Origin: a bacterium
GTDB lineage: Bacteria; UBA9089; CG2-30-40-21; SBAY01
Direction: 5' to 3'
Length of the DNA: 14,820 bases
Assembly: GCA_040757115.1 (NCBI GenBank)
Contig: JBFLYA010000090.1
Coordinates: 1 to 14,820 of the forward strand
Shown: piece by piece, positions 1 through 14,820 of the stretch
How the letters are laid out: every line of letters starts with the position of its first letter
Position numbering within the stretch: position 1 is the stretch's first letter
The notes under the pieces: model-generated
Databases searched by the model: none
Seen by the model: the letters and a program-made list of their open reading frames with translations, nothing else
What the model was told of the DNA's origin: nothing
Made by a program: the position numbers and the translations under genes

Positions 1-45
1 GGGTCAGTGAAATGGGGGATTCTCCTGAAAGTAGGAAGTAGGAGA

Positions 46-127
46 GTAGGAAAGTAGGAAAGGGGGAGACATTGCCCCCAGAAGAGGAATACCGTGCACA
101 TCCTTTATCCCTTTCCTACTTACCTAC
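46..127. repeat. Inverted repeat made of GTAGGAAA-type tandem units
   Basis: The arm at 46-64 (gtaggaaagtaggaaaggg) is the reverse complement of 109-127 with one mismatch in 19. The left arm continues a short tandem run from about 30 (agtaggaagtaggagagtagg), and the right arm continues as tacctac units to about 142. The whole stretch 1-206 is otherwise without a gene. The design, a low-complexity tandem repeat folded back on itself, recurs at 4316-4546 and 13899-13959 with different units. Confidence 0.75.
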
Positions 128-207
128 AACCTACTTACCTACTATTTTCATTGCTTTGTCCTCCGCAGATTAATGTTCATCCCCCCAAAATGACTAACGC
201 ATTACGA

Positions 208-3246: not shown

Positions 3247-3279
3247 GATAATACCCATAAATAAGGCATGAGAATAATC

Positions 3280-3305
3280 GTTCCGTTAGGAACATAATAT
3301 TGGTA
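3280..3305 (+). repeat. Palindromic repeat unit A1 (stem GTTCC-GTTA-GGAAC plus AT-rich tail)
   Basis: A perfect 5-bp stem, GTTCC/GGAAC with loop GTTA, is followed by the tail ataatattggtag. It is one of five copies in the window (also 3329, 14581 reversed, 14623 and 14673). It lies in the spacer between the convergent ligase and FN3 genes. There is no U-tract, so it is not a classical terminator. Confidence 0.75.
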
Positions 3306-3328
3306 GGAATAGATAGACAAATCAATCA

Positions 3329-3354
3329 GTTCCGTAGGAACGATATATTGGTAG
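3329..3354 (+). repeat. Palindromic repeat unit A2 (stem GTTCC-GTA-GGAAC plus tail)
   Basis: The 5-bp stem GTTCC/GGAAC with loop GTA is followed by gatatattggtag, nearly the tail of the unit 49 bases before it. Directly after it, tagaaatttatggaaa (3352-3367) is found again identically at 14789-14804, so the flanking low-complexity sequence is shared with the right end of the window too. Confidence 0.75.
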
Positions 3355-3393
3355 AAATTTATGGAAAGCCATTTACCGATATGTTGAAGGATT

Positions 3394-4044: not shown

Positions 4045-4067
4045 TTTTTCTTATACCTCCTTATTTT

Positions 4068-4116
4068 TGGTAATTGGTGACTGGTAACTGGTAATTGGTA
4101 ACTGGTAATTGGTAAC
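4068..4116. repeat. Seven tandem 7-bp units (TGGTAAY)
   Basis: TGGTAAT and TGGTAAC units alternate seven times with one variant (tggtgac). They lie 8 bases upstream of the ribosome site of the small FN3 gene, that is, in its 5' untranslated or promoter region. Seven-base units tend to slip, so copy number may vary between strains. Confidence 0.9.
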
Positions 4117-4219
4117 TAAGTTCCTGTTTAGCGTCTCCCACGATTCTTCCCTTATTATCTTCCGCAAGATTTTACCACAGATTATCACTGATTACTTACT
4201 TTTCTGGTCTCGGATGTAA

Positions 4220-4289: not shown

Positions 4290-4302
4290 GTAAGCGTTCA
4301 GG
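4290..4302 (+). repeat. 13-bp terminal motif copy (gtaagcgttcagg)
   Basis: Identical to 14699-14711 and one base different from 13335-13347. As at 14699, it is followed within a few bases by a GTGTAA start and a GGAGATA-rich repeat, so it appears to mark the left boundary of that element. Confidence 0.7.
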
Positions 4303-4315
4303 CTACACATCCGGT

Positions 4316-4546
4316 GTGTAAAAAGGGGGATAAGGAGATAAGGGAGATGTGGAGATTATAAATTAAAAGATTATGGTTATGAAGTTGGTATGGAAGCCTG
4401 CTCCTGACAGGTTCAGGAGTTAGGTCAGGATGGTTCTAACTTCATAACCCCTAAACCAAACCAGCCCCCTAACCCTAACCCTTTCACCAAAAACTCCTAA
4501 ATATATCCCCTTATCTCCATAATCTCCATATCTCCTTTTCTTACAC
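4316..4546. repeat. GGAGATA-rich element with inverted ends
   Basis: The left arm 4316-4360 starts gtgta and runs into ggataaggagataaggg units. The right arm 4507-4546 is the same type of sequence in reverse, starting gtgtaagaaaaggagat when read on the minus strand. The right arm read in reverse matches 14714-14748 at about 32 of 35 positions, so this is a dispersed family with at least three arms in the window. The interior holds the hairpin at 4375-4449. Confidence 0.65.
4375..4449. repeat. Nested hairpin: 12-bp outer stem with a 7-bp inner stem
   Basis: GGTTATGAAGTT (4375-4386) pairs perfectly with AACTTCATAACC (4438-4449). Within it CTCCTGA (4401-4407) pairs with TCAGGAG (4413-4419) across a 5-base loop. 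This is a compact two-level structure of about 75 bases in the middle of the GGAGATA element. It could be a folded RNA or a single-strand DNA hairpin of a non-autonomous element. Confidence 0.65.
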
Positions 4547-4586: not shown

Positions 4587-7500
4587 TTACGGTAAATTTA
4601 TATCACCTGCATTAGTCGTGCTGGCGTTTACGGTTGTCGATGTCTTACCCAAAGAGCCTGCTTCTACCTCGATATAAATGTTGTCTTGATTTGAGTAACT
4701 GAAAAAGCCTTGTAAATCTTTAGTCCTGATTTTATTTTTGTCTATTTCCCATCTGCCTGTAGCGTCGGTTAAACAAGCCGCCCAGACGGATTCTGAGGAA
4801 TTATCCTGTTTTTTCAATTTAACATAAACAATTGCCCCTTCAACTGGCATAGGACCTTTTTTAACATAACCCGCGATATTCGCCTGTGCTTGCGGCGGTA
4901 TCGTCGGTCCTGTGGTGAAAGAATAGGTTGCCGGGTCAGTTGAGTTACCACAAACCAGCGTGTAAAGATATGTAGTTTGTGTTTTTAGATTTTTAATAGT
5001 AACAAAATGTGTTTCTGCTTGAGTATCTACCCCACGGTCATCAAACGCCTCATAACCCAAAGATGTCGTCGTGCCGTAAAGAACTTTACATTTCAGGTTA
5101 GAGGTAGTAATCCAGGAGATAGTAACTTGATTTTCTGCAAAATTACTCACCCTGGTCCAATTTGGCGAATATTTGCTGATTTGTTTTGAATAGACAAAAT
5201 AGCCTTTATCTATATTCGTTGTAAAGTTATAGAACTCCGGGAAGCCAATCTGATACCCTGCCCAGAAGCTTCCATCATCCCAGCGTTGAACAATTGTTGC
5301 TGAGCCGTTTTGGGCATTTATATTCTGGAGCAGGTTTTTAGCCGTAATTGTCGCCACACCTTGACCAATTAAGTTCCAGCCAACTCGTAGATTTATATTT
5401 TCTGATTCAATTTTACTGCCGTGCATCTGCCAGGTGCTGGCATTCTTACAATGCACAAAATAGCCTCTTCCAACTTCAATCGGCATATCGTTATTAAAAT
5501 ATGGAGGTGTTGGTGGAATGCCTATCTGGTAAGTTAACCAGGTGCTTCCCTCGGTCCAATGTTGAACTATATCTGCGGTTGTGCCCTGTGCATTTATGCT
5601 CTCAACTAAATTTTCAGCGGTGTATGGTTTAAGCGTTGGTATTAACGGTAATGAGAATAGATTCCATCCCGCTCGGAAAGAGACGGTTCTCGTCGTAATT
5701 GGTCCAGCCAGAGTAGTTGCATCACAGGTGGTGATACCAGAAGGATTTGCCACCTCATCCCGGGTCTGAATGTAAAATCGATATGCCGTCGTGCTAAGTA
5801 ATCCAGTTATTGTTGCCTGCTGGACACTTCCGACAGGTTGAGGGAGAGGTGGTGAAAGAAACACAGTGGCATTATCCCAATTTCCTCCGACAGGTGCATA
5901 TTTGATGATATAAAGTGAGGCAGTGCCTGTAAAATTGTTATCACCCGGTGCACTCCACTCTAATCCAGCCGAATCAGAGGTAATATTTTTTACCGTAAAA
6001 TCGGTTATTGTGCCTGGCGCCCAAATGTCTCCTGGTGTCGCACTACCTACATTTGACATAGGTCCTTCTTGATCACCACTTACTGCGGTGACGACATAAT
6101 AATAAGGAATATCCTCAGTTACCGTGTTATCAATATAACTCGTTGTGCCAATTCCGGTATCAATCTGTTGAAAAGTTACTGTCCCTGCTGGCGGTATATC
6201 TGTGCGGTAAATATTAAAGGTCGTTGGTGTGGCAATATTATATTCCCAGGTTAATGATATTGAGCCCGGATGTCCAACCGCCTGGAGATTTGTCGGTCCA
6301 GTAATAGCAGGTGCCATTGCGGGCAGGGAAAGACTACCCAATGGTGGTGGAGTAACCTGTATCCCTAAAAAGGCATCCGTGTAAGTAATACTGGTTGAGC
6401 CAATTAATTCAAAATAGTCAGTTGATTGGAGTGGAGTAGGTGCTTTCGGTGCTTTCCCTTTCGTTTTTTGTGGGGTAATCGACAGGGTTAGTAAGATATT
6501 CTTTTCCGACCCCGGTGCGATATTCCCTCCCTCACCCCATTCCCAGATAATTGTATCTCCAATTTGTGTGCTGGTTCCGGGGAATGTTGAAATCAAATCG
6601 ACATCAGCATTTAAGTTCATCGTTATCTTTGGTGTTTCGGCAATATCATCCCCGGTATTGACAAATAATACCTTTAAATCTACCTCATTTCGTTCGTTGA
6701 GTGTGAGTGTCTGTGTTATTTCGCCATTAAATGCCCGTCGTATCTGATTAACGATATATTCCTGATTCATCGCAGGTCCATGAACAACAACGGTTTCAAG
6801 ATTCCCCGCAGAAGTGCCTGTTTCGCCAAAATGGTCTTTAAACTCAATCCCCGGACCCTCATTCACGACCTTTATGCCACTTCGCACACTATCCGTAATA
6901 GATTGAACAATCACATAAAAATCCTGCTTCATTTCATTATTATCATACCAGGGTAATTGTTGGGCATAGTTAGGTAAAGTAAAGGTTACGGTGCCTTTTG
7001 TGGGGTTAAAGGAAACATCTCTATTTAATGCTTCAAAATAAGCCGCTGATTGTGTGCCTCGTGGTTTTTGATTCACATCTATTCCCATAAGTCGTTCAAA
7101 TTCTGCTTTTTCTGCGGCATTGGCTAATTTCGCCTTATTTACCGTAACAAAAGAGGGAAAACCATCGGTTAAATGGACAACCGTCGATGAACCATACGAA
7201 GTTAAAATATGCCCTTGAGTATCCTCTATCCCTATCCAGGCGGCCGGGATTTCAAAACCGACATTGGCTAATTGATTGCCCGGCTCATCACAGGTCAATT
7301 TGAATTTTATCTTATGTATCTTACCTCTATCTAAATCAGGGATATTGGGTTTGGTCGTAATTTTAAAATAGACTATCCCTCGCCAGGCATCCGCAATCTT
7401 CGGTTCATTTTGAGCCTCAAGTAGATACGATAAGTCCTGATGCACCGGAGGAATAGAATTTAATAAATCATCCACAGTAATCGTCATCCAATCATTAATT

Positions 7501-10500
7501 ATCCGATATGTCTCCGGGTCAGAGGTATCTGGTTCGATTTTAACATTTTTAAGGGTATATGGGTCATTGGCGCTGCCACCAAGGTTATTACAAACCTCAA
7601 TTCTCACAAATGTTTCCTGTCCCGGGGCAAGTCGTGGGGTGCAAAGTTTATCATCAATACGACCACCAACAAATGTGCTGGCGGTTATCCTCCCAAACCC
7701 ATAGCTTTTAAGGAATGTCTCCATTTCAAATTGTCGTGGCTCATACGGGTCTTCAACTTTAATAATATGAAACACCGTATCGCCATAATTACCGATATTG
7801 ACTGGTGCTACCTTTTTAGAAATCTCAACATCACTAACTAACCCCCAGACCGCCTGAACATGGGCATCCATTATCATATATTGATTAGGGCCTTCATCGG
7901 GCTTATGAAAGATATATCGACTACCATCATTAACCTTCATCGGTCCCTCATAATGCACATCCGGATAATATGTGTTCATATCTGCCCAGATATGAATTTC
8001 TTCTTTTTCGCCAGTAAATAATGCCTGATTGAAATATAGGGTATGAAACATCGGCTCATCTTTTTCATCAACAAGTTGTGTTGGGTTGCCTACATTCTGA
8101 TAATCAGTCAAATAGTACTGCTCATATCTTGTATCAAACCCTAATCCTTTAAAGATATTCTTGACAATTAAACTCTGGTCTTTATTTATCTTAAATTTTT
8201 CATCAGGTTGATATATTTGCTCAAATTCCCGTGACCCATTCCATGTTTTGGCAATCAGATGTAATTTTGCAGGTTTGGAGACATCATATTCTAAATACAA
8301 TTTTTCATCACCATCCCTTGTGTATGGCGGCTTCCCACTGGCGGTATCCTTCTCTACATAAAGTTCATAGGTATCATTTACCGTTGGATAAACTTTAACC
8401 ACCGGGAAGAAGTCATTCGATTTTTTAAACTGTGGGTCCATCGTTCTAAGAGGGGCAGAATGCGGTCTCCCCCACATATCCTGCCATTTTACCTTTGGTA
8501 GATTTTCAATGTTAGTTGGAATAGGTGAATAAGCAATGCCCTGTGATAAATATTGTTTATATGGGTTTTCATCTGAGCCTAATAAAATGATAAAGAATAA
8601 TGCCTGAGCATTCATCAGCACCTTACCATTAACAACATAGTTTTCCGGGATATTGGGTAATGTTGCCATTAAAATTGTTCTGGGCGGAAGGATTTTATTT
8701 TTGTCAGTAGAAGTGCCCGGGTAGGGCGGTGGTAATTCCGTGCTCCTTATCCCATATCTGACAAGTGGGTCGATAAAATCATACCCGCCAATTTGATGAT
8801 ATGTCCAGGTGCCGGTCCAGGTAAGTTTTTGTGCCGGCAGGATTATATCGCCATTTGGGGCTAAACTAATTAAAGGTTTATCAAGTCCTGGTCCCCATTG
8901 TGGTTCTTTATAAACATTTGGGATTTCAATTGGTGCCCCATAAGGATTTTCATAGATATAAGTTGTCACGCCATCCCAGTTATTAACATTAAATTTGACA
9001 TAGCGGTTAGGTGCTTCGATAGGTAGTGGATAGCGTGGGTCATCAAAGAAAAATACCTCATTTTGTAACCAGACATTGGCATCACCGTCATCTACATCCC
9101 AGTATGTGCCGCCAGTTGACCAGACTATCTTTCGATTATCCGTTACATCAACAATTGGGGCAACCAAAGCGACTAAATCCTGGACATTGACATTTTTTGC
9201 CAATGTATCTTCTTTATTTTCAATGGGAAAGACAACATCCGAGAATATTCCGCTGCCAACAACGCCATAAGCGGTAAGTTTATCCAGCGAGCGGTCGCCA
9301 ACTAATCGTGCCGCCATTTTTGCCTTCATCGTTACATCACGGGCATAAATCGTTACATCACCACCTGGCACCTCTTTGTAACTTGCGGATGTCTTGCAAA
9401 CAACCGCCTCTCCTTTTTTAAGGGCATTTGCCTCTGTAAAAACCCAGAAGGATAAGTTTAACTTTGTATTTTCATCAATTTCGCCAAAATTCCAGGTAAT
9501 AGTGGTCAATGTGCCAGGACCCAGGTCAGTGATAGTCCCTTCTCGCTCAATATTAGATTGTAATGGGCTGATTTTAGACTGGTCAGTAATATTGAATCCC
9601 GGCTGGACTACCGATTTGATAACTACATCCTTAAGTGGGTTATTCCAGAAGTTACAAAATGTTACCGTAACATACACCGGGACATCTGCCTCTAATCCGG
9701 GAATAATATCTTTGGGCACCTCCTCAGAGAACTTTTGGCAGGCATCCATTGATAAAGCCGCCTTTCTCGACATACTTAAAAGCACCGCATCTAAGACCAT
9801 TGGATAATATTCTGTTTTATCCGATGGATGAGAAGGTATCATCATCGCACAGCCTAACTGGTGTTCAATATAAATTATGGCTGGTGAATCTGAATGATTG
9901 GTATCAGTATATTTAGCGATTATTGTCTGGGTAGCATTTGCCACTGGCGATTTTTCTAATAATAACGGGTCGTCAAGAACATAAGTTTCTGGAGCTAACC
10001 AGGAGAAGGTAAGTGGATGTGCGGTATCTAAAATATTTAGTTGCCCTTTACTATCTATATCTGTTACGCGTGTTTGTAAATCTACGGTTCCAGAACCTAC
10101 CAGCCCAAGTTTTTCCACTAAATACACACATTCTCCCTGCGTGTAAAGGATACCGCCATTGGCGATAAATGATTTGAGATTATCTAATCCTTGTTGGGTC
10201 AAAGTGCCAACAACATCTTCCACATAACCTTTTTTAACTGATGGGAAAATAACCAGGTCATAATCAGCAAGTTTGCCCTGGCGAATATCATTTTCATTAA
10301 CACGGTCAAAGTATTCACCCCAAAGATACATCCGGAATATTTGTTCAAAATAACCTTCTTCCCAGGTAATGTATTGGTCATATTCATCCATTAAATCCGA
10401 GTAAAATAAAGCAATCTTGATGGGTTGTAAGGAATAGGATTTTGAGACACCAAGCACATTTCCTGTCCCAACACCCTTTTCTACAACAAGATAATCTGGC

Positions 10501-13154
10501 GTTGGTGTGCCAACAAAATCTATAAAACTTATTACCGTTGAGGTTGCGGGTGAATATTCTGAGATAAATGTGCCGGCATCAAAAACCGTGTTGTGATAAG
10601 GGAATGATGTGGAGGCAGTCCATTCCATATTACCATATTCATAAACATGGTTAAAGCAAGCCTTGTAGGCATTTCTTATTTTATCCAGTTTAATCTGACC
10701 AGCACCTTCTTGCTGGTTACCCATAGGGATAATGACACTCATTGGCTCATATTGATAGCCAAGTCCAACCGGTGTGCGACATATCTCCGTAGAATAGTTA
10801 CTGGGATATGAATTAGTGTTATAGCCGCGTAGGGCAAGATAGTATTTTTTATCATTCGTTAATCCTTCGAGATTATATTTCGGGACATTACCCACATCAA
10901 TCATGTGGTCATAAGTTTTATTAATCGTTCCTGCGTAGGATTCATCGCCATAATATAAGATATACCCAGCAATATCTGGTTGAGGGCTGGGGTTCCAGGA
11001 AAGGTAAAGCACCTCATCCCCAGGCAGACATTCAGCTTCTTTCCAGAGAGGTGGTGTTGGCAGGTCGCCTTTAGTCGTATCTGAGACAACATTAGAAAGC
11101 CCGGATTCATTTCCAGCCTCATCTACGGTTTTTAAGGCAAAGAAATAGGTTTTATTCCAGCCAAGTCCGGTGACGGTGAAAGTTGCTCTCGTATTTGGGG
11201 CATCAGGTTTTGGTTCGCCAAATGCCTGGAAACAATTATCCCAATTCGCCTCAGTAATCTTCTCAAGAGAATATCGCACATCATAAACACTTGCCTTACC
11301 CTGTGTGCCGTTATCTCCTGGATTAGTCCAGCTAAGTTCTATGGTGCTTGCAGTAACACTTCCTACGGCTAAATCAGTAACCGTAGCTGGAGAAATCATA
11401 TCGGTTGAAACGACATTGGATAGTGCGGAAACATTATATTGCTCATCATTTGTTTTCAGGGCAAAGTAATATTCATATTTAGTCAGTTGTAGGTTCTGGA
11501 CGATAAATACCTCCGGTTCTCCTGCCTTTCTGGGTAGCGGTATGCCTACCTGTGTGGCAAATACCCAGGTATCCTCGGTTATGGGCACAGTAGAGTAGCG
11601 AATATCGTATTTATCATCGGTTCGATTTGGATAGCCTTTATCTTTTGTCCAGGTTATATTTCCGTCATCACCAGGGGATGTCCAGACCAACATAAGTGAG
11701 CCGTTTTGCAGATTAACATTGGCAATGGCAAGGTCAGTCACGGTGCCAGGGGCTATTTCGTCTAAGGTCGTTTTCTGAAAGACATTGGATATGTTAGACA
11801 ACTGTCCGCCTCTATCCATAGTTTTTAAGGCAAAGAAATAGGTTGTTTCGGGTTGGACGGTGCGACTGCCAATGGGTAATTTTCGGTCATCAGTGACAGT
11901 TCCGATAACAACCAGATGGTCTCGATTACCGGCAAAGGAAGGTTTTGGTATTATACCTGGAGCAGAGGCACAATTGTCAAAATCATTCTGTAAGGTATTT
12001 GTGCCTTGCGTTGTCCATTTAATAGTATAAGTGCTTGCCTGTCCTTGACTTCCATCTGCACCAGGTGCAGTCCAATTTAAAATAATGCTAAATGATGTTG
12101 GTTGAATGGGTTGCCAGCCGGTGATTGCTGTCCAATACAAACTATCAAGGTCGCTCACCGCGGCTGGTGGGGTATCATTTAGCATCACTGTAGTTTGTTC
12201 TCCCGCAGAATAAGTTCCATCTTTATCATAGGCAAAAGCGGTGTAGTAATAAGTTTGAAGTGGAATTAATGCCGGGTCTTCATCTGTGCAGGTCTCATAC
12301 TGATTATTATAAATTACCATTAATTTCCCATCATTTGTTAGACTACCAACAACATAGGTTGAAGTTGCTCCTTGAGTTGGTGTCCAGGTGCCAATAGTCT
12401 CTGTCCCGCGGACAATAAGCACACCACGAAAATAAGCATTGTAGGGATTCTCCCAGCTCAATCGAATGATATTATCATTCGATTCGCCTTTAAACTTCTT
12501 TACCGGATTCATCATCCCGGGTGCAAGTTCAAATCGGAACTCAACAGCATGTTTTGATTCTGGATTATGTTGTCTGGTATGAAACATATCGGCTAAACCT
12601 ACTTCAACCGTATAAGTTCCGGGCACACAATTTTTAAAAGTCCAGGTTGTCTCGTTAACAAATCCTGTCCAGACAGCTTGTTTGTTTCCACCAGGCGGCT
12701 GGCAGTAGAGCACAAGAATAATATATCCTTCCCAGTAGCCATCAGGTGCCATGCCGATACTGAAGTTTTCTACTTCAAATGTCGCGGTAATCGAGCCTTC
12801 ACTGGTGATGGTGGCAGTAGCGGTTGGCCAGGTAACGCGGATGGTCGGTGGGGCATAACTTGCCGTAAAATCTACATCGGAAATATCAACACCGCTTATT
12901 TGAACTGTTCTGGAACCTGGTGAAAAAGACCACCATAATTTATCCGGGGTAACAATGTAATTTCCATCTGGCAGACCACTAAAAACATAACTACCATCAG
13001 CCGATGTGGTGGTTACACTTGAAACATTGCCGGCAATGGTCACCTGGGCATCAGCAAGAGTGTTAATTTTACCACTTATGCTAAAAGCCCCGACATTTGA
13101 AACCCCTGTGAAATAGCCGATTAAACCTAATATTAGAATCATCCATTTTTTCAT
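4587..13154 (-). CDS. Giant secreted multidomain FN3 protein with an embedded amidotransferase-like domain
   Basis: About 2,855 residues, predicted secreted and likely cell-surface. A signal peptide covers residues 1-24 (MKKW, hydrophobic core, VGA before FS). Approximate domain order: carboxypeptidase-regulatory-like sandwich 25-100; beta-rich region 100-320; four FN3 repeats about 330-790, several opening with PATVTDL-type linkers and containing W-(T/S)-x-PG-D-(D/N)G; class I amidotransferase/ThuA-like alpha/beta domain about 905-1110, with IALFYSDLMDEY, YDLVIFP and GGILYTQGECVYLV (Cys near 1009); DUF11-like sandwich about 1150-1270; a long region 1270-2280 I cannot assign, partly beta-rich and DUF11-like; two FN3 repeats about 2285-2480; a duplicated GWNL module about 2485-2660; PAP-like FN3 about 2665-2745; regulatory-like sandwich about 2750-2855. 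The start chosen is ATG 13154, with GGAGG ten bases before it; the adjacent TTG at 13157 is possible. The exact role is unknown. The reading frame is intact throughout. Confidence 0.88.
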   Translation of the reverse strand: MKKWMILILGLIGYFTGVSNVGAFSISGKINTLADAQVTIAGNVSSVTTTSADGSYVFSGLPDGNYIVTPDKLWWSFSPGSRTVQISGVDISDVDFTASYAPPTIRVTWPTATATITSEGSITATFEVENFSIGMAPDGYWEGYIILVLYCQPPGGNKQAVWTGFVNETTWTFKNCVPGTYTVEVGLADMFHTRQHNPESKHAVEFRFELAPGMMNPVKKFKGESNDNIIRLSWENPYNAYFRGVLIVRGTETIGTWTPTQGATSTYVVGSLTNDGKLMVIYNNQYETCTDEDPALIPLQTYYYTAFAYDKDGTYSAGEQTTVMLNDTPPAAVSDLDSLYWTAITGWQPIQPTSFSIILNWTAPGADGSQGQASTYTIKWTTQGTNTLQNDFDNCASAPGIIPKPSFAGNRDHLVVIGTVTDDRKLPIGSRTVQPETTYFFALKTMDRGGQLSNISNVFQKTTLDEIAPGTVTDLAIANVNLQNGSLMLVWTSPGDDGNITWTKDKGYPNRTDDKYDIRYSTVPITEDTWVFATQVGIPLPRKAGEPEVFIVQNLQLTKYEYYFALKTNDEQYNVSALSNVVSTDMISPATVTDLAVGSVTASTIELSWTNPGDNGTQGKASVYDVRYSLEKITEANWDNCFQAFGEPKPDAPNTRATFTVTGLGWNKTYFFALKTVDEAGNESGLSNVVSDTTKGDLPTPPLWKEAECLPGDEVLYLSWNPSPQPDIAGYILYYGDESYAGTINKTYDHMIDVGNVPKYNLEGLTNDKKYYLALRGYNTNSYPSNYSTEICRTPVGLGYQYEPMSVIIPMGNQQEGAGQIKLDKIRNAYKACFNHVYEYGNMEWTASTSFPYHNTVFDAGTFISEYSPATSTVISFIDFVGTPTPDYLVVEKGVGTGNVLGVSKSYSLQPIKIALFYSDLMDEYDQYITWEEGYFEQIFRMYLWGEYFDRVNENDIRQGKLADYDLVIFPSVKKGYVEDVVGTLTQQGLDNLKSFIANGGILYTQGECVYLVEKLGLVGSGTVDLQTRVTDIDSKGQLNILDTAHPLTFSWLAPETYVLDDPLLLEKSPVANATQTIIAKYTDTNHSDSPAIIYIEHQLGCAMMIPSHPSDKTEYYPMVLDAVLLSMSRKAALSMDACQKFSEEVPKDIIPGLEADVPVYVTVTFCNFWNNPLKDVVIKSVVQPGFNITDQSKISPLQSNIEREGTITDLGPGTLTTITWNFGEIDENTKLNLSFWVFTEANALKKGEAVVCKTSASYKEVPGGDVTIYARDVTMKAKMAARLVGDRSLDKLTAYGVVGSGIFSDVVFPIENKEDTLAKNVNVQDLVALVAPIVDVTDNRKIVWSTGGTYWDVDDGDANVWLQNEVFFFDDPRYPLPIEAPNRYVKFNVNNWDGVTTYIYENPYGAPIEIPNVYKEPQWGPGLDKPLISLAPNGDIILPAQKLTWTGTWTYHQIGGYDFIDPLVRYGIRSTELPPPYPGTSTDKNKILPPRTILMATLPNIPENYVVNGKVLMNAQALFFIILLGSDENPYKQYLSQGIAYSPIPTNIENLPKVKWQDMWGRPHSAPLRTMDPQFKKSNDFFPVVKVYPTVNDTYELYVEKDTASGKPPYTRDGDEKLYLEYDVSKPAKLHLIAKTWNGSREFEQIYQPDEKFKINKDQSLIVKNIFKGLGFDTRYEQYYLTDYQNVGNPTQLVDEKDEPMFHTLYFNQALFTGEKEEIHIWADMNTYYPDVHYEGPMKVNDGSRYIFHKPDEGPNQYMIMDAHVQAVWGLVSDVEISKKVAPVNIGNYGDTVFHIIKVEDPYEPRQFEMETFLKSYGFGRITASTFVGGRIDDKLCTPRLAPGQETFVRIEVCNNLGGSANDPYTLKNVKIEPDTSDPETYRIINDWMTITVDDLLNSIPPVHQDLSYLLEAQNEPKIADAWRGIVYFKITTKPNIPDLDRGKIHKIKFKLTCDEPGNQLANVGFEIPAAWIGIEDTQGHILTSYGSSTVVHLTDGFPSFVTVNKAKLANAAEKAEFERLMGIDVNQKPRGTQSAAYFEALNRDVSFNPTKGTVTFTLPNYAQQLPWYDNNEMKQDFYVIVQSITDSVRSGIKVVNEGPGIEFKDHFGETGTSAGNLETVVVHGPAMNQEYIVNQIRRAFNGEITQTLTLNERNEVDLKVLFVNTGDDIAETPKITMNLNADVDLISTFPGTSTQIGDTIIWEWGEGGNIAPGSEKNILLTLSITPQKTKGKAPKAPTPLQSTDYFELIGSTSITYTDAFLGIQVTPPPLGSLSLPAMAPAITGPTNLQAVGHPGSISLTWEYNIATPTTFNIYRTDIPPAGTVTFQQIDTGIGTTSYIDNTVTEDIPYYYVVTAVSGDQEGPMSNVGSATPGDIWAPGTITDFTVKNITSDSAGLEWSAPGDNNFTGTASLYIIKYAPVGGNWDNATVFLSPPLPQPVGSVQQATITGLLSTTAYRFYIQTRDEVANPSGITTCDATTLAGPITTRTVSFRAGWNLFSLPLIPTLKPYTAENLVESINAQGTTADIVQHWTEGSTWLTYQIGIPPTPPYFNNDMPIEVGRGYFVHCKNASTWQMHGSKIESENINLRVGWNLIGQGVATITAKNLLQNINAQNGSATIVQRWDDGSFWAGYQIGFPEFYNFTTNIDKGYFVYSKQISKYSPNWTRVSNFAENQVTISWITTSNLKCKVLYGTTTSLGYEAFDDRGVDTQAETHFVTIKNLKTQTTYLYTLVCGNSTDPATYSFTTGPTIPPQAQANIAGYVKKGPMPVEGAIVYVKLKKQDNSSESVWAACLTDATGRWEIDKNKIRTKDLQGFFSYSNQDNIYIEVEAGSLGKTSTTVNASTTNAGDINLP

Positions 13155-13164
13155 CAAAAATACA

Positions 13165-13334: not shown

Positions 13335-13356
13335 GTAACCGTTCAGGTAATCCTTT

Positions 13357-13385
13357 ACCGCAGAGACGCAGAGAAACAGAGAAGA
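13357..13385 (+). repeat. ACCGCAGAGACGCAGAG-type repeat, forward copy
   Basis: accgcagagacgcagagaaa (13357-13376) is the reverse complement, with small differences, of the two long copies at 13567-13619 and 14070-14122. It stands immediately before the GxxExxY N-terminal fragment and so forms an inverted pair with the copy that follows the C-terminal fragment. Confidence 0.8.
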
Positions 13386-13386
13386 C

Positions 13387-13575
13387 ATAAAAATAAATCA
13401 GATAACAGAAAAGATTATCGGTGCAGCTATTGAAATACATAGGAGCTGCTTGCCGAATGTTCAGCAGACAAGCCAGATTTGTTAATCCATCCCTGATTTT
13501 CATCAGGGCAAGTTTAATGTTGTTGTACTCAAAAGCTTGCCCAGGGATGTTAAGCGTCTCGTCCCTAGATTTTAA
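13387..13575 (+). pseudogene. Internally deleted GxxExxY family gene (PD-(D/E)XK_3-like), copy 1
   Basis: The frame from 13387 reads IKINQITEKIIGAAIEIHRS, the typical N-terminus of GxxExxY proteins (usually M-x-x-NQITEKIIGAAIEVHRxLGPGLLES). The initiating ATG has become ATA. After HRS the frame meets TAA at 13483. In the same frame 13513-13575 reads FNVVVLK, a short insertion, then DVKRLVPRF and a stop, the usual C-terminus. The middle of the protein, including the GxxExxY motif and the putative nuclease residues, is missing, so about half of a normal 120-130 residues remains. Family members are small proteins of uncertain function in the PD-(D/E)XK-like group. The remnant is bracketed by inverted ACCGCAGAGACGCAGAG repeats, hinting that it was once mobilised as one unit with them. 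Confidence 0.7.
13488..13549. repeat. Overlapping hairpins inside the GxxExxY remnant
   Basis: CATCCCTG (13488-13495) pairs with CAGGGATG (13542-13549); GGGCAAG (13506-13512) pairs with CTTGCCC (13536-13542); CCCTGA (13491-13496) also pairs locally with TCAGGG (13503-13508). The loop encodes the FNVVVLK piece of the GxxExxY C-terminus, so palindromic sequence sits on both sides of a short preserved coding stretch. Confidence 0.5.
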
Positions 13576-13619
13576 TTTTTTTCTCTGCGTCTCTGTGTCT
13601 CTGCGGTGAACAGTTACAA
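13567..13619 (-). repeat. 53-bp GxxExxY-associated repeat, copy 1
   Basis: It runs from agattttaattttttt through ctctgcgtctctgtgtctct to gcggtgaacagttacaa. It matches 14070-14122 at 52 of 53 positions (A versus G in gaacRgttac). Its first bases overlap the last codons and stop of GxxExxY remnant 1. Confidence 0.92.
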
Positions 13620-13668
13620 AAAGAGTTAGTCAAAAGTCCGTATTAAAAGATTAATAAACAATGAAAGA

Positions 13669-13699
13669 CCCGAAATGCACAAAAAAAGGAAATTTCGGG
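13669..13699. repeat. Hairpin CCCGAAAT/ATTTCGGG
   Basis: The perfect 8-bp arms 13669-13676 and 13692-13699 enclose a 15-base A-rich loop. The right arm is part of the 18-bp inverted repeat end at 13689-13706, so the element end can itself fold, as is common at REP-like element ends. Confidence 0.6.
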
Positions 13700-13790
13700 A
13701 CGGTTCCTTTTATCGTTTTTCCTATGATTTTTGTTGGAAATTGGAAATTGGGCTGTAACTATTCACCACGAAGGGTACGGAGAGCACGAA

Positions 13791-13961
13791 GTGAAATTTG
13801 ATGAATTATCGAATAGAGTCATTGGATGCGCTATAGCGGTGCATCGAACTCTTGGGCCAGGTTTGCTTGACACCGTGAAGAGTGATAATTCACAATTGAC
13901 AATTCACCATTCACCATTATTAAGGAAATTTAGGGAAGAAATTGTGAATGGTGAATTGTGA
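13791..13961 (+). pseudogene. Truncated GxxExxY family gene, copy 2
   Basis: From GTG 13791 the frame reads VKFDELSNRVIGCAIAVHRT then LGPGLLD (to 13871), an excellent match to the GxxExxY N-terminus, which normally continues ES-x-YE. Here the family sequence stops at LLD and about 29 unrelated codons derived from the GTGAATTG repeat follow to a stop at 13959-13961. Only about a fifth of the gene remains. The last codons of such a gene may survive outside the element: 14060-14080 can be read as SLVNRF-stop, matching LVPRF-stop of copy 1. It differs clearly in sequence from copy 1, so the two are separate family members, not a recent duplication. Confidence 0.65.
13899..13959. repeat. Hairpin of GTGAATTG/GTGAATG tandem units
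   Basis: acaattcaccattcac (13899-13914) pairs perfectly with gtgaatggtgaattgt (13944-13959), with 29 bases between. The right side continues as tandem gtgaatg/gtgaattg units to 13970. This insertion is what breaks GxxExxY remnant 2. Confidence 0.8.
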
Positions 13962-14069
13962 ATGGTGAATAGTTACATTGGGCTTTTGTCTCTCTCCCTG
14001 ATTTCTAATTTCAATCCGCAATCTTTCAAACAAAAGTGAACCGTCCCGAAATTTCTGTCTCTGGTGAAT

Positions 14070-14122
14070 AGATTTTAATTTTTTTCTCTGCGTCTCTGTG
14101 TCTCTGCGGTGAACGGTTACAA
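14070..14122 (-). repeat. 53-bp GxxExxY-associated repeat, copy 2
   Basis: It matches 13567-13619 at 52 of 53 positions and ends with ggtgaacggttac, the 13-bp motif in inverse orientation. It is separated from copy 1 by 450 bases, so recombination between the two copies could delete the intervening element. Confidence 0.92.
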
Positions 14123-14167: not shown

Positions 14168-14572
14168 ATGGGAGTTTTTACTGTTTCAATGAAGATAAGA
14201 AACTGGCAGAATAGGTATCTACCTGCTGATAAACAGGGAGAAGAACTTGAGTGTATGGCTCTCGTTGATTCAGGGGCAGCAGAACTTTCACTTCCTGCTG
14301 AGATGATTGACCAACTCAAGTTGGAAGAGATTGGAACTGTGCAAGTATATACAGCTGATGGGGGTCAACATGAATATCGGGTTTTCGGTATAGCAGAGGT
14401 AGAAGTGCAGGGAAGAGTATCTCAGGTACGCGTAATTGAGCTTCCACATGGAACTGAACCGCTTCTTGGGGCAGTCCCTCTCGAGGAGATGGATTGGCAC
14501 ATCTCTCCTTTAGAAAAAAGGCTTCTACCAAATCCAAAATCTCCCAATAAGCCACTTTTACCTTTGTGTTGA
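14168..14572 (+). CDS. Retropepsin-like clan AA aspartic protease homologue
   Basis: A 134-residue soluble protein without signal peptide or membrane segment. ALVDSGAAELSLP places the catalytic-type D-S-G-A at residues 34-37, and PLLGAVPLEEM (98-108) matches the hydrophobic-Gly plus helix that closes the retropepsin fold. As in other single-domain members the active enzyme would be a homodimer sharing two DSGA loops. Bacterial members of this size are widespread and their substrates are mostly unknown; some are encoded beside toxin-antitoxin or mobile genes. GAGGAGG (14155-14161) lies six bases before the ATG. No promoter is evident between 14123 and 14167; the nearest good plus-strand promoter is at 13278-13307, upstream of the element cluster. 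The tail after residue 115 is Pro/Lys-rich. Confidence 0.8.
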   Translation: MGVFTVSMKIRNWQNRYLPADKQGEELECMALVDSGAAELSLPAEMIDQLKLEEIGTVQVYTADGGQHEYRVFGIAEVEVQGRVSQVRVIELPHGTEPLLGAVPLEEMDWHISPLEKRLLPNPKSPNKPLLPLC

Positions 14573-14580
14573 AATGTAAG

Positions 14581-14608
14581 TCTACAAATATATCACTCCT
14601 AACGGAGT
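14581..14608 (-). repeat. Palindromic repeat unit A3 (reverse orientation; stem ACTCC-GTTA-GGAGT)
   Basis: Read on the minus strand it is actccgttaggagt followed by gatatatttgtaga, the same layout as the units at 3280 and 3329 but with different stem pairs. It begins 9 bases after the protease stop. Confidence 0.75.
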
Positions 14609-14622
14609 TTAAAATATATTCA

Positions 14623-14648
14623 GCCCTGTAAGGGCGAGATGTTTATAG
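14623..14648 (+). repeat. Palindromic repeat unit A4 (stem GCCCT-GTA-AGGGC)
   Basis: gccctgtaagggc is followed by gagatgtttatag. The stem sequence differs from the other units but remains fully paired. Confidence 0.75.
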
Positions 14649-14672
14649 ATTTACCGTCTCAACATCAAATTA

Positions 14673-14699
14673 GCTCCGTAGGAGCGATATGTTTATTGG
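14673..14699 (+). repeat. Palindromic repeat unit A5 (stem GCTCC-GTA-GGAGC)
   Basis: gctccgtaggagc is followed by gatatgtttattgg. Its tail runs directly into the 13-bp terminal motif at 14699. Confidence 0.8.
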
Positions 14700-14759
14700 T
14701 AAGCGTTCAGGTGGTGTAACAAAAGGAGATGTGGAGATTAAGGAGATAGGGAGATATTA
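14699..14759 (+). repeat. 13-bp terminal motif plus GGAGATA-rich repeat, right-hand copy
   Basis: gtaagcgttcagg (14699-14711) is identical to 4290-4302. From 14714 the sequence starts gtgtaacaaaaggagatgtg and continues in GGAGATA units, matching the reverse complement of 4512-4546 with about three differences in 35. If complete, its partner end lies beyond the window. Confidence 0.65.
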
Positions 14760-14770
14760 TTAAAAAAATT

Positions 14771-14804
14771 GAAATTAATAGAAACTAATAGAAATTTATG
14801 GAAA
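14771..14804. repeat. Low-complexity GAAAYTAATA repeat
   Basis: gaaattaata, gaaactaata and gaaatttatg follow one another as imperfect 10-base units. The stretch tagaaatttatggaaa (14789-14804) is identical to 3352-3367, next to palindromic unit A2. The repeat probably continues past the window end. Confidence 0.6.
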
Positions 14805-14820
14805 TTTGTTGTTTTCCACA

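What the first reader, a model, noticed from the sequence alone, without database searches (positions are those of the whole stretch)
13335..14120. One 13-bp terminal motif borders several unrelated repeat modules
GTAASYRTTCASS occurs seven times: plus strand at 4290, 13335, 13755 and 14699; minus strand at 13605-13617, 13964-13976 and 14108-14120. It precedes GGAGATA repeats twice (4290, 14699). Inward-facing pairs bracket GxxExxY remnants within 13335-13617, 13755-13976 and 13335-14120. Shared ends with different interiors look like one mobilisation machinery acting in trans on a set of non-autonomous modules, and I do not recognise it as a named element.
Basis: partly seen in the sequence, partly recalled or inferred. 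Interest (0 to 1): 0.7.

Follow-up and report, generated by a model that had tools for sequence, protein, structure and literature searches.

The report
IS66-end mobile modules carrying diverse passengers
The repeated 13-letter motif is the end of a very large family of small jumping DNA modules that carry no transposase of their own and were most likely moved by an IS66-type (ISBst12-group) enzyme; they fill about 4% of the sampled genome of this uncultured bacterium, and some carry a whole small gene.

Summary
The motif occurs 7 times in the window (0.01 expected) and 1,202 times in the 4.3-Mb genome (3 for the reversed control). In 1.8 Mb sampled, 45 of 131 adjacent inward-facing pairs (median 240 bp) carry an exact 8-bp target duplication; permuted flanks give 0.4 on average, at most 4. 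Empty sites with one target copy exist in a congener and in paralogous repeats, including for window 13755-13976. But the machinery is recognisable: ends, 8-bp duplication and partner transposase match the ISBst12 group of the IS66 family. The same ends flank a broken IS66 transposase in this genome, an intact one in a relative of the same order, and intact copies with 8-bp duplications in another phylum. Interiors include complete GxxExxY and 23S-IVP/four-helix-bundle genes and deletion derivatives (window 13335-13617 is one). Not shown: an active transposase in this assembly, or trans-mobilisation by experiment. Verdict: MITEs and transposase-free gene cassettes of IS66/ISBst12 type; a new variant of a known kind at unusually high copy number.

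The parts
13755..13976 (+). 222-bp module (CACGAAG / GxxExxY remnant type) with perfect 13-bp inverted ends GTAACTATTCACC
   Evidence: Exact 8-bp duplication; paralogous copies of the surrounding repeat lack it and keep one ATTGGGCT; same type with duplications elsewhere in the genome
13747..13754 (.). Left target duplication ATTGGGCT of 13755-13976
   Evidence: Sequence
13977..13984 (.). Right target duplication ATTGGGCT of 13755-13976
   Evidence: Sequence
13335..13617 (+). 283-bp module with ends GTAACCGTTCAGG / GTAACTGTTCACC, an internally deleted GxxExxY cassette; no target duplication
   Evidence: Positions 1-107 and 216-283 match the two ends (91-93% identity) of the 472-bp GxxExxY cassette at C26:12091-12562
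13335..14120 (+). Outer chimaeric unit: left end and GxxExxY module joined to the remainder (13618-13696 and 14048-14120) of a 235-bp CCGCAGAGACGCAGAG module
   Evidence: Pieces 1-48, 284-362 and 714-786 match the duplicated element L060:1760-1994
13697..14047 (.). Second, unrelated MITE family (ends GGGACGGTTC) inserted in the outer unit and itself carrying 13755-13976; 8-bp duplication GAAATTTC at 13689-13696 and 14048-14055
   Evidence: 8-bp duplications in 3 of 6 pairs of this family, none at other lengths
4290..4546 (+). GGAGATA-type module with intact left end GTAAGCGTTCAGG; right end decayed
   Evidence: Matches the duplicated element L114:8759-8996 in two blocks, 83% and 94% identity
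14699..14820 (+). First 122 bp of the 237-bp GGAGATA-type module, cut by the contig end
   Evidence: 100% identical to the duplicated element L049:4487-4723 over 122 bp
1..205 (-). AGTAGGAAAG-type module with divergent ends (GTAATGCGT...), cut by the contig start
   Evidence: Positions 3-205 are 93.6% identical to the duplicated element L050:11985-12194

Best explanation
The motif is the terminal inverted repeat of a large family of transposase-free IS66-type modules: MITEs plus single-gene cassettes. Each is bounded by about 11-13 bp ends (GTAASYRTTCASS) and was inserted with an 8-bp target duplication (shown). The mobilising enzyme is most likely a single-ORF IS66-family transposase of the ISBst12 group acting in trans on whatever lies between two correctly oriented ends (shared ends and duplication length shown; action in trans inferred). 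Some modules carry a whole GxxExxY or 23S-IVP gene and others are internally deleted forms of these (shown); how new interiors are captured is inferred. Modules also insert into one another and form chimaeras, as at 13335-14120 (shown).
For: 1,202 genomic ends against 3 for the reversed control. 8-bp duplications in 45 of 131 adjacent pairs, permuted mean 0.41 and maximum 4 of 10,000, and in no other length; 0 of 176 same-direction pairs. Empty sites for 18 of 67 duplicated pairs against 3 of 106 others, including a 160/160-position gap-free empty site in a congener. The same ends flank an IS66 transposase in this genome (broken) and in same-order relatives (intact). In G065, four 1.49-kb IS66 elements have these ends and exact 8-bp duplications, two with an uninterrupted transposase, beside 200-244 bp MITEs with the same ends. 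ISDge4 of the ISBst12 group has ends GTGACTACTCAGCA/GTAACTGCTCAGCA, a single ORF, an 8-bp repeat and observed transposition (PMC12898284). Whole-gene cassettes with duplications and deletion derivatives.
Against: No intact partner transposase in G000, only a contig-edge fragment in G001 and a weak 45-residue hit in G008 despite 797 ends. The transposase-bearing elements in G000 and G004 have no target duplication. 86 of 131 pairs lack a duplication; decay, chimaeras and mispairing would explain this but were not separated. The assemblies are fragmented MAGs.
Confidence: 0.9

Rival explanations
1. Real non-autonomous transposons, but mobilised by a non-IS66 transposase that recognises the same ends.
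For: Several genomes rich in ends lack an intact IS66 gene in their assemblies (G001, G008).
Against: IS66 elements with these ends occur in G000, same-order relatives and another phylum; the only other transposase found between such ends, an IS630-like gene in L091, appears to be a nested insertion.
Confidence: 0.06
2. Repeats that spread by recombination or gene conversion, or REP-like hairpins, not by transposition.
For: Many copies are decayed or lack duplications; some sites are shared between congeners; different modules can occupy the same intergenic site in two congeners.
Against: Duplications of exactly 8 bp and matching empty sites are the signature of DDE transposition.
Confidence: 0.03
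3. Chance or low-complexity artefact of a degenerate motif.
For: Several interiors are short-period repeats.
Against: 1,202 against 3 for the reversed control; inward pairing 127 against 18-26 for the other orientations within 600 bp.
Confidence: 0.001

Closest known systems
IS66 family, ISBst12 group (e.g. ISDge4 of Deinococcus geothermalis; PMC12898284)
   Same: Near-identical ends (GTAACTGCTCAGCA against GTAACTATTCAGC), 8-bp duplication, single-ORF transposase in the partner elements
   Different: The modules carry no transposase, are mostly 150-300 bp, and number in the hundreds
tIS66: IS66 elements with a passenger gene (e.g. ISPa75 with fosZ; PMC12888890)
   Same: IS66-type ends (GTAA...) around a passenger gene
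   Different: tIS66 keep the IS66 transposase genes; these cassettes hold only the passenger gene or its remnant
Prokaryotic MITEs (Correia, ERIC, Chunjie and others; reviewed in PMC10969869)
   Same: Short, non-autonomous, inverted ends, target duplication, mostly intergenic
   Different: Many differing interiors behind one end type, whole-gene cassettes, higher end count; IS66 is not mentioned in that review

Membership tests
MITE (miniature inverted-repeat transposable element) | Short, no transposase, terminal inverted repeats, target duplication | tested here: met
   Median 240 bp; 13-bp ends; exact 8-bp duplications in 45 of 131 pairs; longest frames in modules over 400 bp are not transposases
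MITE (miniature inverted-repeat transposable element) | Pre-insertion (empty) sites exist | tested here: met
   18 of 67 duplicated pairs; base-level examples
IS66 family, ISBst12 group: origin of the ends | Ends starting GTAA and 8-bp duplication | tested here: met
   compared with ISDge4 in PMC12898284
IS66 family, ISBst12 group: origin of the ends | The same ends flank a single-ORF IS66 transposase | tested here: met
   L031:893-2455 (broken), L137:1450-2954 (intact), G065 elements; PF03050, zf-IS66 and NF033517
IS66 family, ISBst12 group: origin of the ends | Intact partner transposase in the same genome as the window | tested here: not met
   Only a copy with one TAA and one TAG, plus fragments; assembly in 462 contigs
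IS66 family, ISBst12 group: origin of the ends | The transposase moves the modules in trans | not testable with these tools
   Needs a transposition assay
tIS66 (IS66 with passenger gene) | Passenger gene together with IS66 transposase genes in one element | tested here: not met
   GxxExxY and IVP cassettes of 326-546 bp contain no transposase

The most novel reading that the evidence does not exclude
A phylum-wide system of transposase-free gene cassettes: a single-ORF IS66 enzyme needs only about 13 bp at each end, so any DNA caught between two inward ends becomes mobile. This would be a main route by which GxxExxY and 23S-IVP/four-helix-bundle genes and the common short-period intergenic repeats spread, with new module types arising through nesting and chimaera formation.
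Probability: 0.4. Interest if true: 0.72.

Novelty: new variant of a known kind. Interest (0 to 1): 0.57.

Why it matters
It identifies the likely mover of a very dense load of small transposons in a bacterium (1,202 ends, about 4% of the sampled sequence; the MITE review PMC10969869 gives 711 ERIC copies as a high figure). It offers a testable mobility route for two widespread small gene families, GxxExxY and 23S-IVP/four-helix-bundle proteins, and helps explain why such genomes assemble into hundreds of contigs, several of which stop at the same distance inside the repeat. I found no report of IS66/ISBst12 MITEs in the open-access library searched, which is not the whole literature.

Tried and rejected
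Plasmid and phage collections: nothing relevant. Rfam: no match in the window. PDB by sequence for the transposase: no match. Other IS66-profile hits in the genome (C232, C32, C18, C130) are fragments without paired ends in the stretches read. An IS630-like gene lies inside one long span (L091:648-2069) but looks like a nested insertion, not a partner. Empty sites were first sought by pairing flanks, which gave mostly shared or replaced sites; the joined-flank search then found clean ones. The organism's name was not resolved: the intact partner lies in a MAG titled only 'bacterium isolate Yes70-11', and the mineral-water paper that was read does not mention that bin.

Full report
Observation. 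The motif GTAASYRTTCASS is at all seven stated places and strands; shuffles of the window give 0.01 on average and never 7. The window is contig 90 of a 4.3-Mb, 462-contig assembly with 607 forward and 595 reverse matches, against 3 for the reversed pattern. Among 98 genomes, the same genus has 1,195 and most other members of the phylum have an excess, up to 797; outside the phylum most genomes are at the level of the reversed control, and a few, notably G065 (21), G078 (33) and G047 (11), have a modest excess.

Transposition (shown). I read 1.8 Mb of the genome in 101 stretches, window included. Of 450 ends, 131 form adjacent inward-facing pairs under 2.5 kb, median 240 bp. In 45 of the 131 the 8 bases before the left end equal the 8 bases after the right end; no other length gives a signal. 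Permuting the flanks gives 0.41 on average and 4 at most in 10,000 trials. Same-direction pairs give 0 of 176. A search that fixes only GTAA/TTAC and an imperfect inverted repeat finds 66 pairs with exactly 8 bp and at most 4 at any other length from 5 to 10. Joining the flanks with one duplication, and searching this genome and 0.76 Mb of a congener, finds junction-spanning empty sites for 18 of 67 duplicated pairs and 3 of 106 others. The cleanest is L110:7797-8004 (CATTAAAT): the congener's L190:6205-6046 covers all 160 positions at 98.1% identity without gaps and has one CATTAAAT. The window element 13755-13976 (ATTGGGCT) has paralogous empty sites in L086 and L118. Other copies are shared between the congeners, for example CGTTACTT in L064 and L159. 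Target sites are AT-rich (27% G+C against 37% overall), and 64 of 66 lie outside open frames of 120 codons or more.

The machinery. The same 13-bp ends flank a 1,563-bp element on C277 that codes for an IS66-family transposase broken by one TAA and one TAG. A same-order relative has an intact 468-aa version between GTAACCGTTCACA ends, with PF03050, the IS66 zinc finger and NF033517 at 270 bits; D233, D283 and E406, plausible catalytic residues, are invariant among three relatives. Another relative has a 522-aa version between GTAACTACTCAGG ends. In G065, a single-contig genome outside this phylum, four 1.49-kb elements with GTAACCATTCAGG/GTAACTATTCAGG ends have exact 8-bp duplications, two of them with an uninterrupted transposase, beside MITEs of 200 bp (one mismatch in the duplication) and 244 bp (exact) with the same kind of ends. 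The literature agrees: ISDge4, in the single-ORF ISBst12 group of IS66, has ends GTGACTACTCAGCA and GTAACTGCTCAGCA, makes an 8-bp repeat and transposes (PMC12898284). Family identity of the ends is therefore well supported; action in trans on the modules is inference.

The interiors. Modules fall into several types: CCGCAGAGACGCAGAG, GGAGATAAGGAGATA, CACGAAG, CACAGAG with a hairpin, CACAGATGGACACGG, and AGTAGGAAAG with divergent GTAATGCGT-type ends. The types are not all unrelated: at a loose threshold (30 bp of shared interior) the 66 duplicated elements join into seven groups, the largest with 47. Some duplicated elements carry a gene: GxxExxY (TIGR04256/PF13366) in L078:4650-5145 (TTATACAC, open) and L054:14892-15402 (GATAGGTG, one stop), and a 23S-IVP/four-helix-bundle gene (TIGR02436/PF05635) in the 484-bp C49 element (AATAATTC), with further duplicated copies or remnants on C108, C88 and C72. 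The C72 copy is a deletion derivative of the C49 type, and window 13335-13617 matches both ends of a GxxExxY cassette on C26 with the middle missing or replaced. Not all such genes are bracketed: 13 of 26 GxxExxY hits and 18 of 26 IVP hits tested had no such ends. How interiors are captured is not shown.

Anatomy of 13335-14120. A deleted GxxExxY module (13335-13617) replaces the left part of a 235-bp CCGCAGAG module (remainder 13618-13696 and 14048-14120). A second MITE family with GGGACGGTTC ends (13697-14047, duplication GAAATTTC) is inserted in that, and the module 13755-13976 (duplication ATTGGGCT) is inserted in the second MITE. The window starts and ends inside such modules, and several contigs stop 108-113 bp from their last motif.

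Load. Sequence matching the duplicated elements covers 4.0% of the 1.8 Mb sampled and 2.4% of the congener sample. A review of prokaryotic MITEs gives 711 ERIC copies as a high figure and does not mention IS66 (PMC10969869). The figure of 1,202 here counts ends, not elements, and includes solitary and decayed copies.

Weak points. No intact transposase was found in G000, only a contig-edge fragment in G001, and a weak 45-residue hit in G008 despite 797 ends. Multi-copy elements are easily lost from fragmented assemblies, but extinction or another enzyme is not excluded. The transposase-bearing elements in G000 and G004 have no duplication.

Verdict. Observation confirmed and extended. New variant of a known kind.

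Noticed in passing
13697-14047: A second, unrelated MITE family with GGGACGGTTC...GAACCGTCCC ends, also with 8-bp target duplications (3 of 6 pairs in the sample); its transposase was not sought.
   Followed up: partly
L065:13425-13661 against L159:17346-17445; L054:2705-2869 against L161:18666-18739; L113:15723-15944 against L156:13714-13880: At three orthologous intergenic sites the two congeners carry different modules instead of one filled and one empty site. Two of the congener's modules are GGTAATTGGTAACTGG repeats next to GGGCTTCACGAAATTAAAAG.
   Followed up: partly
4067-4117: A GGTAATTGGTAACTGG tandem array of the same kind as the modules found at those orthologous sites.
   Followed up: no
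1-205 and L050:11985-12194: A divergent end subtype (GTAATGCGTCACT/GTAAGGCGTCAGT) around AGTAGGAAAG interiors, six duplicated copies in the sample; possibly served by a different IS66 variant.
   Followed up: partly
14699-14820 and the ends of C56, C57, C58, C61, C66: Contigs stop 108-113 bp from the last motif, so this repeat is a main cause of fragmentation of the assembly.
   Followed up: partly
L031:1273-1285: The motif GTAAGCGTTCAGG also occurs inside the coding sequence of the broken IS66 transposase.
   Followed up: no
4587-13157: A 2,856-aa open frame with fibronectin type III repeats, probably a large secreted protein.
   Followed up: no
14168-14572: A small open frame matching clan AA / gag-type aspartyl protease profiles.
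   Followed up: no
3276-3365 and about 14590-14695: Another short intergenic repeat (TTCCGTAGGAACGATATATTGGTAG type), two tandem copies and a related stretch near the other end of the window.
   Followed up: no
L239:361-497 (G047): In an unrelated genome a 137-bp unit with ends GTAACTGTTCAGG/GTAACTATTCACC has an exact 8-bp duplication (GAAAAAAC), hinting that such modules exist outside this phylum.
   Followed up: partly
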